A DNA stretch of 64,000 nt, taken from contig NZ_KL370783.1 in NCBI RefSeq assembly GCF_000701465.1, positions 102,602-166,601 of the forward strand. The letters are read 5' to 3'. Shown here piece after piece: positions 36,129-40,929 of this stretch; positions within the stretch are counted from its first letter, which is position 1, and each line of letters begins with the position of its first letter. The notes under the pieces were generated by a model. The model was not told the DNA's origin and ran no database searches. It saw only the letters and a program-made list of their open reading frames with translations. The stretch comes from Paraoerskovia marina DSM 21750. GTDB taxonomy: Bacteria > Actinomycetota > Actinomycetes > Actinomycetales > Cellulomonadaceae. A program made the translations under genes and the position numbers.

Positions 36129-37535
36129 ATGCACCGCTCCCCCACGATCCCGCCCGACGCGCAGCCACCCAGGGCGCGCCACGGCGTCGCCCTCGTCGCC
36201 GCGACGGCGCTGCTCGCGCTCGCCGGGACGACGACGCTCGCCGCGGTCACCCTCGACGCGGACCCCGCGGCGGCCGCCGGCACGTGCGAGGCCGACTTCG
36301 ACGTCAACAACCAGTGGGACGGCGGGTTCGGCACCAACGTCGCCGTGACCAACACCGGAGACCCTGTCACGTCCTGGGAGGTCACCTGGGAGTTCTCGGG
36401 CGACCAGCAGGTGACGCAGCTCTGGAACGGGACGGTCAGCCAGAGCGGGAACACCGTCCACGTCGCGAGCCTGCCCTGGAACGGGGCCGTCGGGACGGGA
36501 GGCACGCTCTCGTTCGGGTTCAACGGGTCCGGCGACGGCAGCACCGCAACCCCCACCGCGGTCACGTTGAACGGGGCCGCATGCTCGACGGGCACCGACC
36601 CCACGCCGACACCGACGACCACCACGCCGACACCCACCCCGACCGAGACGACGCCCACACCCACACCGACGGAGACCACGGACCCGCCGGCAGCGGACGG
36701 CGACCTCTACGTCGACACCGGCAACCAGGCTTACCCGGCCTGGAGCGCCGCGAGCGGGGACGACAAGGCGCTGCTCGCCAAGATCGCGCTCACGCCCCAG
36801 GCGTACTGGGTCGGCAACTGGGACGACCCGGAGCACGCGCAGGCCGAGGTGCAGGACTACACGGGGCGTGCGGTCGCCGCCGGGCAGGTCCCGCAGCTCG
36901 TGATCTACGCGATCCCGGGGCGTGACTGCGGCTCCTACTCCGGCGGCGGCGTCGCCGAGTCGGAGTACGCCGACTGGATCGACACGATGGCTGCCGGCAT
37001 CCAGGGCAACCCCCTCGTCGTCCTCGAGCCCGACGCCCTCGCCCAGCTCGGCGACTGCGACGGCCAGGGCGACCGGGTCGGGTACCTCGCCTACGCCGCG
37101 TCGTCGCTGACCGACGCCGGTGCGCACGTCTACGTCGACGCCGGGCACTCCGGCTGGCTGGCCCCGTCCACCGCGGCGGACCGGCTGCTGCAGGTCGGCC
37201 TCGACGACGCCGTCGGGTTCGCGGTGAACACCTCGAACTACCAGACGACGGCCGACAGCCGGGCCTGGGCCGAGCAGGTCTCGGCGCTCACGGGCGGCGC
37301 GGGCTACGTCATCGACACGTCGCGCAACGGCAACGGTTCCAACGGGCAGTGGTGCAACCCGAGCGGCCGCGCCCTGGGCGACAGGCCCAGCCTGGTCGAC
37401 GACTCGACGAACCTCGACGCCCTGCTGTGGGTCAAGCTCCCCGGCGAGTCCGACGGCACCTGCAACGGCGGGCCGTCGGCCGGCGCCTGGTGGCAGTCGA
37501 TGGCGCTCGAGCTCGCCCGCAACGCCTCCTGGTAG
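36129..37535 (+). CDS. secreted endoglucanase: CBM2 plus GH6 (CenA-like)
   Basis: A 468-residue secreted beta-1,4-glucanase. Signal peptide 1-50 (long, basic-proline N-region), CBM2 cellulose-binding domain about 51-156, a Pro/Thr linker (TPTPTTTTPTPTPTETT) about 158-188, then the GH6 catalytic domain. Acidic residues of the GH6 site are visible in IPGRDCGSYSGGG, VLEPDALAQL and VKLPGESDG. Paired cysteines fit the conserved disulfides. The domain order equals that of Cellulomonas fimi CenA (about 449 residues). ATG at 36129 follows GGAGG. Control by a LacI-type protein is suggested by the upstream palindrome. Confidence 0.93.
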   Translation: MHRSPTIPPDAQPPRARHGVALVAATALLALAGTTTLAAVTLDADPAAAAGTCEADFDVNNQWDGGFGTNVAVTNTGDPVTSWEVTWEFSGDQQVTQLWNGTVSQSGNTVHVASLPWNGAVGTGGTLSFGFNGSGDGSTATPTAVTLNGAACSTGTDPTPTPTTTTPTPTPTETTPTPTPTETTDPPAADGDLYVDTGNQAYPAWSAASGDDKALLAKIALTPQAYWVGNWDDPEHAQAEVQDYTGRAVAAGQVPQLVIYAIPGRDCGSYSGGGVAESEYADWIDTMAAGIQGNPLVVLEPDALAQLGDCDGQGDRVGYLAYAASSLTDAGAHVYVDAGHSGWLAPSTAADRLLQVGLDDAVGFAVNTSNYQTTADSRAWAEQVSALTGGAGYVIDTSRNGNGSNGQWCNPSGRALGDRPSLVDDSTNLDALLWVKLPGESDGTCNGGPSAGAWWQSMALELARNASW

Positions 37536-37581: not shown

Positions 37582-38967
37582 TCAGGCCACAGGAAGCAGG
37601 GCCGCGACCTCGCGGGCCGCCCGCTCGCCCGAGCTGATCGCGCCGTCGACGTACCCGCACCACCGGGTAGCCGTCTCTGTGCCGGCCCAGTGCACGACGC
37701 CGACCGGCTCTCGCAGCGCCCGTCCCACCTGCGTCCAGGCTCCGGGCGGCAGGTGCGCGCCGTAGCAGCCGCGCGTCCACTCCTCGGCCGTCCAGTCCTG
37801 CTCGTTGAACGACGTCGGGGACAGCGCACGGTCGCCCACGTACCCGGCGAGCACGCGCACGACGGCGTTCTTCCGCTGCTCGGGCGTCCACGCCGCCGCC
37901 TCGAGGGCGTCCGCACCCTCGATGAAGGCCACGAGGATCCCCGGGGGCGGCGCGTCGTCCGGCCCGGCGCCCGAGCGGGCCGGGGGCGTGGCGTCGAAGA
38001 CCACCTTCACCGGACCGGTGTCGCCGGCCGCCTCGCCGCTCAACCCGTCCTCGCGCCAGAACGGCGTCGGGTAGACGGCGTGGCACTTGATCACGCTGCC
38101 GTGTGGCATGCGGCGCTGCACGGCGTCGCGGACGGGCGGGAGCGGCGGTGCGAACGCGATGCCCGCGACCAGCGCCGGCGGGACGGTCACCACCATCCGG
38201 CGTGCTCGCAGGACGTCCGCCCCCGTCCGGACGACGACACCGCCCGGACCGTGCTCCACCGCCGTCACCGGCGACGACAGACGCACCCGGTCGCCGAGAC
38301 CCGCGGCCAGGTGCTCGGCGAGCTGGGCCATCCCGCCGTCGACCACGGCGTGCTGCGCGCCGCCGCCCGTCGTCAGCAGGTGCGAGAACGACGTGCCGGA
38401 GCGGCTGTAGAAGAGCGCATGGAGCAGGGAGAGGTTCGCGGACGTCGTCGCGAAGACAGCCTCGCACCCGATGCGGAAGAAGTCTCGGCCCTGCGAGGTC
38501 CGCAGGTTCCGACGGATCCAGGTCTCGAACGTCTGAGCGTCGAGGCGGACGGCGTCGGGCGTCGCCCAGGGTGCGTCGAGGTCGACCCGTGCGCACAACC
38601 GGTCGAAGCGCCACAGCGCCTGCCCGACGTCGGCGAGCGCCACGGCACCGATCTTGGGGGTGTCGCCGCGGTACCGGCGCAGACTCCCGCGCAGGCTCAC
38701 GAGAGCGTCGCGACCGTCGTCCTGATCGTGGGTGGTGAGGCCGAACCGGTCGAGCTCGGCGAGCAACGCCCGCTGGTCGGGCCCCACCCACTGGCCGCCG
38801 ACGTCGATCCGGTACTCCGGGTGGTCGGGCACCGGGACGGTGTGCGTGCGGCCGCCGACGCGGTCGCGGGCCTCGAGGACGACGACGTCGTACCCCTGGG
38901 TGGTGAGTCGGTCTGCCGTGACGAGGCCGGAGACCCCGGCTCCGACGACCACGATGTCGTGCTGCAT
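37582..38967 (-). CDS. flavin-dependent amine oxidase (monoamine oxidase family)
   Basis: A 461-residue FAD enzyme that would oxidise an amine to an aldehyde with hydrogen peroxide release. The dinucleotide-binding motif DIVVVGAGVSGLVTADRL starts at residue 4, followed by the conserved EARDRVGGRT block; near the C-terminus HWAGTETATRWCGYVDGAI binds FAD, and its cysteine may hold the flavin covalently as in monoamine oxidases. Length is normal. The start ATG has a TAGGGT -10 box seven bases upstream and no ribosome site, so it is probably leaderless. It is divergent from the RDD fusion gene. Confidence 0.9.
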   Translation of the reverse strand: MQHDIVVVGAGVSGLVTADRLTTQGYDVVVLEARDRVGGRTHTVPVPDHPEYRIDVGGQWVGPDQRALLAELDRFGLTTHDQDDGRDALVSLRGSLRRYRGDTPKIGAVALADVGQALWRFDRLCARVDLDAPWATPDAVRLDAQTFETWIRRNLRTSQGRDFFRIGCEAVFATTSANLSLLHALFYSRSGTSFSHLLTTGGGAQHAVVDGGMAQLAEHLAAGLGDRVRLSSPVTAVEHGPGGVVVRTGADVLRARRMVVTVPPALVAGIAFAPPLPPVRDAVQRRMPHGSVIKCHAVYPTPFWREDGLSGEAAGDTGPVKVVFDATPPARSGAGPDDAPPPGILVAFIEGADALEAAAWTPEQRKNAVVRVLAGYVGDRALSPTSFNEQDWTAEEWTRGCYGAHLPPGAWTQVGRALREPVGVVHWAGTETATRWCGYVDGAISSGERAAREVAALLPVA

Positions 38968-38974
38968 GAGACGT

Positions 38975-39018
38975 ACCCTATGACCAGTTTCGGTGAGCGC
39001 GGTCACACGGGCTACATT
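38975..39018. promoter_or_regulatory. divergent leaderless promoters of amine oxidase and RDD fusion genes
   Basis: On the minus strand TAGGGT (38980-38975) lies seven bases before the amine oxidase ATG. On the plus strand TACATT (39013-39018) lies six bases before the GTG at 39025. Only 57 bases separate the two start codons, so the promoters must overlap. Confidence 0.55.
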
Positions 39019-39024
39019 CTCCGC

Positions 39025-40929
39025 GTGACCGCCACCCCCGCCCGGCGCCTTGCCGGCCTCGCCCTCGACGCCCTCCTGCTCGTCGTCACGCTCGGGATCG
39101 GCTGGCTGGTGTGGTCGTGGTTCGAGTGGGGGCACGCACGCACTCCCGGCATGCGGCTGGTACGCCTGCACGTCGAGCGCGGGGACGGCGCGGCGGCGCG
39201 CGGCCGGATGGCCGCCCGGGAGGTGCTCTGGAAGGGGCTCGCACTGCTCGCGGGCCTGGTCTCGTTCGGCGTGCTCTGGTGGGCCGCGGCCGCCCCCGTG
39301 CTCGGACGACGCCGTCGTGCGCTCTGGGACGTGGCGGCCGGCACGGACGTGGTGGGCACGCGCGAGGTCGAGCGGGGCACGGTCCGCCGTGTCGTGGGCC
39401 GCACGGGGGCGGGCGCCGGTCTCGTCGCCGTGACCGCCGCGACCGCCCTCCTCGCGGTGATGTGGCTCCCTGCCGGCGCCACGGTCGTCTCCAACGTCGT
39501 CGCGGGCGAACGCGCTGACGAGCTCGCCGGCACACCGGCGACGGCGCGCTGCACCGAGCTGCGGCCCGAGGGCCGCGTCGAGACCCAGGGCCGCGCTGCC
39601 GACGGGGCCACGCTGCGGGTGTTCACGATCGGTTACCACCTGCGCGTCTCGGACGCCGAGGACTACGCGACCTACCGCGACCGCATGCGCTGCCTGATGG
39701 AGGACGAGGTCGTGCCGCACCTCGAGCCCGGGCAGCCGGCGCTCGTCGTCTACCCGGAGGACGTCGGGCTGCCGGCCGTCGCGCTCGGGGCGCGCGGTGC
39801 CACCGTCCGCGCCCAGGCCGAGGGACCGCTCCGCGCCGTCAGCCCGGACGTACCGCTGGCGCTCGCCGGGGCGCTCGGGCAGTTCAACCTCGGCTACGGC
39901 CCGCAGATCGCGGCCTACCAGGCGAGGTTCGGCGGCGTCGACCCGCGCAAGCAGGCGATGCTCGCCGCCACCGACACCGCGGTCCGCTCGTTCGCCCGCA
40001 CGTTCTCGGAGATCGCGAGCGACTACGGCGTCTACGTCGTCGCGTCCAACAACATGGCCGACTACCGCGTGACCACCGACCCCGCCGAGGTGGCGCTCTT
40101 CGCCGACCCGGAGGCGCAGCCCACCGATCGCGCCTACGTCGCGACGTCGTCGCGCGTTACCAACTCCACGTTCCTGTGGGGACCCGACGTCGTCGACCCG
40201 GACGCACCGGACTACCTGACGAACCTGCTCGCGAAGAACGAGAAGATCCCCCTGACGCCGCTCGAGCTCGATCTGCTCGGCCTCGACGAGGGCCCGGCGA
40301 CCGGCCCGGAGGCGCTCGAGAACGCCGCCCCGGTCGACGTGGAGGGTTTCGCGGTGGGGATGGCGACGTCGTTGCCCGCCTTCCGGTACGGGTACCCGTT
40401 CGGGGAGCGTCCCTCCGGGTTCGACCCCTGCGCGGACCTGCGGGAGTCGTACGAGGCGTGCCAGGACGAGCTCGGGGTCGAGGTGGTGGTGCAGGCCGAC
40501 GCCAACCCGGGACAGTGGCCGGCCCCGGGGGGCCACGGCGAGTACCAGCCGCTCGAGTGGATGGGCAGCGTCTGGCGGCAGGTCGCCGACCCCACGGTCT
40601 CGACCCGGTACAACGTGACCCCGATGATGACGGGCAACCTCTTCGACCTGACCTTCGACGGTCAGTCGACGATCTCGGAGCGCGGGGCCTCGGGAGGCGG
40701 GATGCACCTCGTCGGGATCGACGCGGCCGAGCCGGAGGACGGCGACGAGTGGCGGATGTACGCGGGCGACAAGTCCGAGTTCCTCGTGATGTCGCCGTGG
40801 GTGGTGGACTCGGACGACCGCGACGAGCTGCGCGCGACGGCCGCCGAGCTCGCGGGCGGGTCCGGTGCGGACCGCGAGAACGACTACGTCGAGTCGGTGC
40901 TCTGGGCCGACCTGGTCCCCGCGGAGTAG
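39025..40929 (+). CDS. RDD membrane domain fused to a nitrilase-fold domain without the catalytic cysteine
   Basis: A 634-residue protein. Residues about 1-115 form an RDD domain with membrane helices (RRLAGLALDALLLVVTLGIG, arginine near the start); another helix follows at about 131-153. From about 195 the sequence resembles carbon-nitrogen hydrolases: Glu in LVVYPEDVGLPA, Lys in KNEKIPLTPLELD, and VVVQADANPGQW near the end. The position of the nucleophilic Cys (normally after a GVAIC-type strand) reads GMATSLPAF, so it is replaced by Thr/Ser. It may be a sensor or a changed enzyme rather than a nitrilase. I chose GTG at 39025 because of the -10 box; an ATG at 38980 is the alternative. Confidence 0.72.
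   Translation: MTATPARRLAGLALDALLLVVTLGIGWLVWSWFEWGHARTPGMRLVRLHVERGDGAAARGRMAAREVLWKGLALLAGLVSFGVLWWAAAAPVLGRRRRALWDVAAGTDVVGTREVERGTVRRVVGRTGAGAGLVAVTAATALLAVMWLPAGATVVSNVVAGERADELAGTPATARCTELRPEGRVETQGRAADGATLRVFTIGYHLRVSDAEDYATYRDRMRCLMEDEVVPHLEPGQPALVVYPEDVGLPAVALGARGATVRAQAEGPLRAVSPDVPLALAGALGQFNLGYGPQIAAYQARFGGVDPRKQAMLAATDTAVRSFARTFSEIASDYGVYVVASNNMADYRVTTDPAEVALFADPEAQPTDRAYVATSSRVTNSTFLWGPDVVDPDAPDYLTNLLAKNEKIPLTPLELDLLGLDEGPATGPEALENAAPVDVEGFAVGMATSLPAFRYGYPFGERPSGFDPCADLRESYEACQDELGVEVVVQADANPGQWPAPGGHGEYQPLEWMGSVWRQVADPTVSTRYNVTPMMTGNLFDLTFDGQSTISERGASGGGMHLVGIDAAEPEDGDEWRMYAGDKSEFLVMSPWVVDSDDRDELRATAAELAGGSGADRENDYVESVLWADLVPAE

What the first reader, a model, noticed from the sequence alone, without database searches (positions are those of the whole stretch)
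39025..40929. RDD membrane domain fused to a nitrilase-fold domain lacking the nucleophilic cysteine
The Glu and Lys of the carbon-nitrogen hydrolase triad are recognisable, but the expected Cys site reads GMATSLPAF. Fusion of RDD with this fold is unusual. It could be a non-catalytic sensor, a changed enzyme, or an apolipoprotein N-acyltransferase-like relative.
Basis: partly seen in the sequence, partly recalled or inferred. Interest (0 to 1): 0.5.

Follow-up and report, generated by a model that had tools for sequence, protein, structure and literature searches.

The report
Serine nitrilase paired with amine oxidase
This gene makes a membrane-anchored enzyme of the nitrilase family in which the usual reactive cysteine is a conserved serine, and its relatives in two distant groups of bacteria often sit beside an amine-oxidising enzyme, which suggests an unrecognised amide- or lipid-cleaving pathway outside the cell membrane.

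Summary
Window 39025-40929 (+) encodes a 634-residue protein: a short RDD membrane domain (over Pfam's cut-off), one more hydrophobic segment, and a nitrilase-fold domain whose predicted model matches nitrilase-superfamily structures (best Z 23.7). The catalytic Cys position is Ser449. Glu245, Lys407, Glu414 and Ser449 are identical in 29 of 29 intact relatives and in 6 of 6 of a more distant Ser group. Serine is encoded by both AGC and TCN codons. One decayed member has lost Glu245, Lys407 and Ser449 together. The Cys pair in DPCADLRESYEAC is absent from the distant Ser group and is probably a disulfide, though some weak alignments favour it. So it is most likely an altered but working hydrolase, not a sensor. 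The RDD link belongs to one small clade: in three relatives RDD is a separate gene whose stop overlaps the start of the nitrilase gene. Other relatives, in Actinomycetota and Nevskiales, look secreted or lipoprotein-like, and 7 of 31 are fused to a glycerophosphodiester phosphodiesterase. A FAD amine oxidase lies next door in 20 of 31 loci, this one included. Substrate and activity are untested. Glu-Lys-Ser nitrilases have been noted in cephalopods. New variant of a known kind.

The parts
39025..40929 (+). CDS of the RDD-TM-(Ser)nitrilase fusion, 634 aa, GTG start
39058..39342 (+). RDD domain (residues 12-106), short form; profile match begins at position 44 of 137
   Evidence: Pfam PF06271 32.1 bits, cut-off 24.1; RDD as separate genes in L037, L043, L045
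39418..39492 (+). extra hydrophobic segment (about residues 132-156, by eye) between RDD and the nitrilase domain; Arg-rich before, acidic after, so the nitrilase domain is read as outside
   Evidence: sequence; the model is below pLDDT 50 here
39562..40926 (+). nitrilase-fold domain (residues 180-634)
   Evidence: AlphaFold2 model, 38 of 46 ten-residue blocks from residue 181 on at mean pLDDT 80 or more; VIA Z 23.7 to 8pt4_D, model range 180-634
39757..39759 (+). Glu245, first triad residue
   Evidence: 29 of 29 family A, 6 of 6 group B, 30 of 30 controls
40243..40245 (+). Lys407, second triad residue
   Evidence: 29 of 29 family A, 6 of 6 group B, 30 of 30 controls
40264..40266 (+). Glu414, near the place of the 'fourth catalytic residue' (Lys+7 here; Lys335+8 in E. 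coli Lnt)
   Evidence: 29 of 29 family A, 6 of 6 group B; Lnt numbers from PMC5500890. The control column does not show a shared Glu
40369..40371 (+). Ser449 (TCG) at the nucleophile place
39550..39552 (+). Cys176, probable disulfide partner of Cys223 (inference)
   Evidence: 27 of 29, 2 gaps where the aligned rows start later
39691..39693 (+). Cys223, probable disulfide partner of Cys176 (inference)
   Evidence: 29 of 29
40429..40431 (+). Cys469, probable disulfide partner of Cys479 (inference); rival nucleophile
   Evidence: 29 of 29 family A, 0 of 6 group B
40459..40461 (+). Cys479, probable disulfide partner of Cys469 (inference)
   Evidence: 29 of 29 family A, 0 of 6 group B
37582..38970 (-). 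divergent neighbour: MAO-type FAD amine oxidase, 462 aa, no export signal seen by eye
   Evidence: PF01593 E 1.1e-74; best solved relative 8p84 'Monoamine oxidase' E 1.7e-109; the same pair in relatives
38971..39024 (.). 54-base gap between the divergent start codons
   Evidence: coordinates

Best explanation
The C-terminal domain is a catalytically altered member of the nitrilase superfamily, a Glu-Lys-Ser hydrolase (or acyl transferase) that most likely works on the outer side of the cytoplasmic membrane. Ser449 attacks an amide or ester carbonyl, Glu245 acts as general base, and Lys407 with Glu414 stabilises the intermediate, giving an acyl-Ser enzyme that water or another acceptor resolves. 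Its usual partner is a MAO-type amine oxidase; the simplest joint role is that the hydrolase frees a primary amine which the oxidase oxidises. In this small clade the hydrolase is tied to an RDD membrane module (separate overlapping genes in Micromonosporaceae, one fused gene here), and the oxidase lacks an export signal, so RDD may serve as anchor or as a way in for the product. Shown by computation: fold, residue conservation, fusions, gene pairing. Inferred: activity, side of the membrane, and the amine link. The substrate is unknown.
For: Fold. Ser in the Cys place: alignment A5, where the Cys of L017 and the Ser of the other rows share a column once group B is included; two of three MAFFT modes with 30 controls; profile steps. 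Conservation: Glu245, Lys407, Glu414 and Ser449 in 29 of 29 family A and 6 of 6 group B. Ser is kept through both codon classes in 34 distinct site contexts: 16 AGC and 18 TCN. The one decayed member, L060, lacks Glu245, Lys407 and Ser449 together but keeps Glu414. Group B L083, with Ser at the site, still passes Pfam CN_hydrolase (23.5 bits, cut-off 23.2). Partner: oxidase adjacent in 17 of 21 loci, 2 of 7 more (L076, L079) and 1 of 3 more (L138), so 20 of 31. It is the genome's best oxidase hit in 9 of the 12 genomes with a hit under 1e-100, of 16 searched, and the best of 8 PF01593 hits in the window's genome. Export: 16 of the 20 adjacent oxidases have a twin-arginine-like N-terminus (read by eye), the other 4 being the RDD loci; Sec-like or lipoprotein-like N-termini on many of the hydrolases (by eye).
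Against: The residue two places after the nucleophile is D or E in 30 of 30 controls (25 D, 5 E), is the essential Glu389 in Lnt (PMC5500890, passages) and is Asp in 6 of 6 group B, but is Pro451 in 29 of 29 family A, so the oxyanion side must differ. One of three MAFFT modes and the weak direct profile alignment put the ordinary Cys in the Cys469 region; in the small alignments, without group B, the L017 Cys did not fall on Ser449 either. No activity, substrate or experimental structure is known. The oxidase is not adjacent in 11 of 31 loci, and no close copy was found in G811, G783 and G797. In the RDD clade the oxidase looks cytoplasmic while the hydrolase looks exported. RDD and lack of an oxidase signal coincide in four genomes of one clade, perhaps one event.
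Confidence: 0.55

Rival explanations
1. Pseudoenzyme: the nitrilase fold is kept as a non-catalytic binding or sensor domain, for example reporting a ligand to the RDD module or to the amine oxidase.
For: Loss of Cys and of the acidic residue at +2, which is D or E in 30 of 30 controls; membrane module fused here; Pfam and NCBIfam do not recognise the domain.
Against: Glu245, Lys407, Glu414 and Ser449 are identical in 29 of 29 and 6 of 6, Ser is kept across two codon classes, and where decay has happened (L060) Glu245, Lys407 and Ser449 went together. RDD is found in only 4 of 31 loci, while 7 of 31 carry a second enzyme domain, GDPD.
Confidence: 0.2
2. Cysteine enzyme with a moved nucleophile: Cys469 (or Cys479) of the inserted loop reaches the active site, and the Ser is structural.
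For: Both Cys are invariant in 29 of 29 family A; MAFFT genafpair gives Cys in 26 of 30 family-side rows at the control Cys column; the direct profile alignment puts the ordinary Cys at Cys469 at probability 9.
Against: Group B, homologous at E 1.4e-48 and itself aligned to nitrilases at 2.6e-11 with Ser on Cys, has neither Cys. Ser449, not Cys469, follows the strand in the model. Four conserved Cys in a family that looks exported fit two disulfides (inference).
Confidence: 0.12
3. Extracytoplasmic N-acyl-amine or glycerophospho-N-acyl-ethanolamine degradation: GDPD frees the N-acyl amine, the Ser-nitrilase cuts the amide, and the amine oxidase oxidises the amine.
For: GDPD fused in 7 of 31 loci in two phyla, one of them cut by a contig end; MAO-type oxidase next door in 20 of 31; L076 (Actinomycetota) and L034 (Fontimonas, Nevskiaceae) hold all three.
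Against: No substrate evidence; GDPD was not found with most members or in the window; which amines the oxidase takes was not tested; the literature search gave no precedent.
Confidence: 0.15

Closest known systems
Nitrilase (carbon-nitrogen hydrolase) superfamily, PF00795; nearest solved folds beta-ureidopropionase (8pt4) and Nesterenkonia amidase (3hkx, 4izw)
   Same: fold over residues 180-634; catalytic Glu and Lys
   Different: Ser instead of Cys, Pro at +2, an insertion of roughly 20 residues with Cys after the nucleophile, below Pfam detection
Cephalopod symplectin/vanin-like proteins with an E-K-S triad (PMC5541922, passages seen)
   Same: nitrilase domain with Ser in the Cys place and Glu and Lys kept; [quoted passage not shown]
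   Different: animal vanin/biotinidase group with a base domain; the passages seen mention no oxidase, GDPD or RDD
Apolipoprotein N-acyltransferase Lnt (PMC5500890, passages seen)
   Same: nitrilase domain on the outer face of the membrane joined to membrane helices
   Different: eight Lnt membrane helices versus a short RDD module and one more segment; E267-K335-C387 with E389 needed; here Ser and Pro
RDD proteins: H. andaensis Na+(Li+,K+)/H+ antiporter (PMC5996927, abstract); B. subtilis SppI, inhibitor of SppA (PMC7568657, search listing and one passage)
   Same: RDD domain; SppI is likewise an RDD protein tied to an enzyme
   Different: the RDD here is a short form and is fused to, or overlaps the gene of, a nitrilase-fold protein
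Monoamine oxidase / putrescine oxidase FAD family (PF01593; 8p84, MAO-A/B)
   Same: the neighbour is a clear member; GCY motif in 19 of 20 adjacent oxidases (that it marks covalent FAD is recalled)
   Different: paired with a Ser-nitrilase; twin-arginine-like signal in 16 of 20

Membership tests
Nitrilase superfamily (PF00795) | alpha-beta-beta-alpha nitrilase fold | tested here: met
   AlphaFold2 model; the 50 VIA rows shown are by title nitrilase-superfamily chains, Z 21.3-23.7
Nitrilase superfamily (PF00795) | catalytic Glu and Lys | tested here: met
   E245 and K407 in 29 of 29, same columns as 30 of 30 controls in all three MAFFT modes
Nitrilase superfamily (PF00795) | nucleophilic Cys | tested here: not met
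   Ser449 in 29 of 29 family A and 6 of 6 group B; Cys in 30 of 30 controls. Homolog by fold, but not a Cys-nitrilase; a moved Cys469 nucleophile is the remaining doubt
Nitrilase superfamily (PF00795) | acidic residue two places after the nucleophile | tested here: not met
   Pro451 in 29 of 29; Asp in group B 6 of 6; D or E in 30 of 30 controls
Nitrilase superfamily (PF00795) | Pfam curated cut-off | tested here: not met
   no hit at E up to 10 for the window protein or for any of the 20 members of A4; group B L083 passes, 23.5 against 23.2
Nitrilase superfamily (PF00795) | hydrolysis or condensation of C-N bonds | not testable with these tools
   no assay
RDD (PF06271) | Pfam curated cut-off | tested here: met
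   32.1 bits against 24.1
RDD (PF06271) | match over the full length of the profile | tested here: not met
   match starts at profile position 44 of 137 here, and at 46 and 45 in L037 and L043
Lnt | hit to the Lnt family model (TIGR00546) | tested here: not met
   no NCBIfam hit for the window protein at E up to 10; the library holds that model (hit by L017)
FAD monoamine oxidase (PF01593), the neighbour | family cut-off | tested here: met
   252.8 bits against 19.8

The most novel reading that the evidence does not exclude
A separate Ser-nucleophile branch of the nitrilase superfamily, spread patchily in Actinomycetota and Gammaproteobacteria, that with GDPD and an exported MAO-type oxidase forms an extracytoplasmic pathway stripping phosphodiester, amide and amine in turn from lipid-derived N-acyl amines. 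In one clade an RDD membrane module replaces oxidase export by bringing the amine inside.
Probability: 0.12. Interest if true: 0.75.

Novelty: new variant of a known kind. Interest (0 to 1): 0.5.

Why it matters
The nitrilase superfamily is usually described by its Glu-Lys-Cys triad (recalled; for Lnt). A bacterial branch with Ser in every intact member examined, missed by the Pfam model, and often placed beside an amine oxidase or fused to a phosphodiesterase gives a ready system to ask whether Ser can be a natural nucleophile in this fold and which chemistry it selects. It also gives a defined partner for the poorly understood RDD domain.

Tried and rejected
Pfam, NCBIfam and PDB sequence searches with the window protein found only RDD. 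PDB search with the A4 profile gave only four weak Bcl-2-like matches, E 0.12-0.14, taken as chance. Weak Pfam matches to NonGDSL (4 of 20 members, best 0.037), DUF5372 and COX17 were not pursued. Searches of viral contigs and plasmids gave nothing, nor did the first genome-contig scan with the window protein alone. First thought, an auxin-type pathway (oxidase plus amidase), was dropped: the oxidase's best solved relatives are MAO and putrescine oxidase, and nothing pointed to tryptophan. The GDPD/N-acyl-ethanolamine literature search gave nothing useful. Of the 20 matching genomes, matches L005-L016, L018, L019 and L021 cover only query residues 2-138 (RDD and segment) and L020 is weak; these were dropped before the counts. 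L064 and L065 (weak) were not counted. G822 (L058/L067/L079) has a broken reading frame and is left out of residue counts but kept as a locus. G780 (L060) is counted as a locus but not among intact members. The topology of the two RDD helices could not be settled: both loops are Arg-rich and the model there is poor. The VIA list gives ranges only, so no residue-by-residue structural overlay was possible. The claim that this family is not described rests on the listings in an open-access library; the only Ser-for-Cys nitrilase case among them was the cephalopod one.

One search also added the oxidases of L138 and L079 to the export count (14 of 18 became 16 of 20).

Full report
What is there. 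The ORF at 39025-40929 (+) encodes 634 residues starting with GTG. Residues 12-106 match RDD over Pfam's cut-off. No other Pfam model matched at E up to 10, no NCBIfam model matched and no PDB sequence did. A further hydrophobic stretch lies near residues 132-156 (by eye). The protein is rare near home: of 59 genomes among the relatives and 396 of the order, only the window's own genome matched.

Relatives. A search of 394 genomes of the class gave 20 matching genomes, of which three hold relatives of the nitrilase domain at 52-53% identity, all in one family, and one (G439, L017) a distant Cys nitrilase; 15 more matched only the RDD part or weakly. An alignment of the four reached 19 loci in the GTDB collection: Frankiaceae and other Actinomycetota, Micromonosporaceae (Hamadaea, Catellatospora) and Gammaproteobacteria, mainly Nevskiaceae (Solimonas, Fontimonas, Stagnimonas, Sinimarinibacterium). 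Profile searches added members elsewhere in the phylum (14 of 396 genomes, the window's own, group B and two weak ones included; 11 of 249, six family A and five group B) and found 12 of 58 genomes in the Solimonas family. The spread is patchy. I count 31 distinct family A loci: 21 (window included), 7 and 3. A more distant group B (L061, L062, L063, L134, L135, L136) has the site as [TI]SKDAW; three of them, read in full, go on into a C-terminal repeat region that looks like a sialidase-type propeller by eye.

The nucleophile place. In 30 of 30 ordinary nitrilases taken from 12 genomes (the window's and 11 related ones) the nucleophile column is Cys (30 of the 40 listed places were kept as loci). 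In family A it is Ser in 29 of 29 intact members and in group B in 6 of 6. Glu245, Lys407 and Glu414 are as invariant. The sites use AGC in 16 and TCN in 18 of 34 distinct contexts, so Ser has been kept through changes between unlinked codon sets. L060 (G780) has Ala for Glu245, Arg for Lys407 and Gly for Ser449, though it keeps Glu414: there the site has decayed as a set, as expected of an active site.

How safe is that alignment? Direct comparison is weak. hhalign of family A against the 30 controls gives probability 9, and its path opens a gap of about 20 residues and puts the ordinary Cys on Cys469; one of three MAFFT modes does likewise. The stepwise path is strong: family A to group B at probability 100 and E 1.4e-48 with Ser on Ser, and group B to the controls at 97.3 and 2.6e-11 with Ser on Cys. 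Group B has neither Cys469 nor Cys479. The Cys-bearing nitrilase L017 joins family A at probability 97.1 and E 6.3e-11, although in that alignment, and in the five-row MAFFT alignment, the site itself falls in a gapped stretch and its Cys is not over Ser449; alignment A5, with group B, does put its Cys over the Ser column. In the AlphaFold2 model (mean pLDDT 74.4; 38 of 46 ten-residue blocks from residue 181 on at 80 or more) Ser449 comes right after strand 442-447 and before helix 450-453. That resembles Lnt, whose Cys387 opens a short helix. Cys469 is outside helices and strands and Cys479 in helix 472-482. The Foldseek and VIA rows shown are nitrilase-superfamily chains by title, best VIA Z 23.7. 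I put about 85% on Ser449 being in the nucleophile place (judgement).

Company. A MAO-type FAD amine oxidase is adjacent in 17 of 21 loci, in 2 of 7 more (the one in L079 is only 26% identical to L034's) and in 1 of 3 more, in both co-directional and divergent layouts. In L035 an oxidase 70% identical lies about 9.8 kb away; in G1023 and G926 close copies lie on other contigs; G811, G783 and G797 have no close copy (16 genomes searched). GDPD is fused to the N-terminus in L033 (cut by the contig end), L034, L035, L075, L076, L077 and L137, that is in both phyla. In several Nevskiaceae loci a TetR gene (L034, L042, L047) and in L038 a glutathione peroxidase gene are near; this may be mere synteny.

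RDD. Only four loci have it: the window, and L037, L043, L045, where RDD is a separate gene whose TGA overlaps a GTG start of the nitrilase gene. They form one side of a branch with 100/100 support. The same four oxidases lack the twin-arginine-like N-terminus that 16 of 20 adjacent oxidases show (motif recalled and read by eye, no predictor run). This is one clade and may be one event.

Mechanism, with basis. Shown: fold (by prediction), residue set, gene neighbours, fusions. Inferred: acyl-Ser chemistry, outside location (signal-like sequences, lipoprotein-like boxes, four conserved Cys), and an amine passed to the oxidase. Against: Pro at +2 in 29 of 29, where 30 of 30 controls have D or E and Lnt needs Glu389, shows that the oxyanion side has changed, so ester or transfer chemistry is as possible as amide hydrolysis, and loss of activity cannot be ruled out.

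Known context. [quoted passage not shown] RDD has been reported as a cation antiporter (PMC5996927, abstract), and an RDD protein, SppI, as an inhibitor of SppA (PMC7568657, listing and one passage). I found no description of this bacterial family in the listings. Overall: a real, well-conserved and, in the libraries searched, unrecognised Ser variant of a known superfamily with an informative partner gene; function open.

Noticed in passing
L083:6562-10290 (relatives in L084, L085, L140, L141, L142): Group B proteins: Ser-site nitrilase domain, in the three read in full followed by a C-terminal repeat region that looks like a sialidase-type propeller; L083 just passes Pfam CN_hydrolase.
   Followed up: partly
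L034:8945-11374, L035, L075, L076, L077, L137: GDPD-(Ser)nitrilase fusions with signal-like N-termini in both Actinomycetota and Nevskiaceae.
   Followed up: partly
L060:595-1959: A decayed family member (G780) that has lost Glu245, Lys407 and Ser449 of the site but keeps the rest of the domain.
   Followed up: partly
window 36132-37535: Secreted glycoside-hydrolase-like protein with a Pro/Thr linker (looks like a cellulose-binding module plus GH6 by eye, not scanned) next to the oxidase gene.
   Followed up: no
L079 (G822): Family member with a broken reading frame beside a distant amine oxidase (26% identity to L034's, PF01593).
   Followed up: partly
L017:1180-2529: Actinobacterial nitrilase with the normal Cys; the only Cys-bearing protein that the window protein search itself brought in.
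   Followed up: partly
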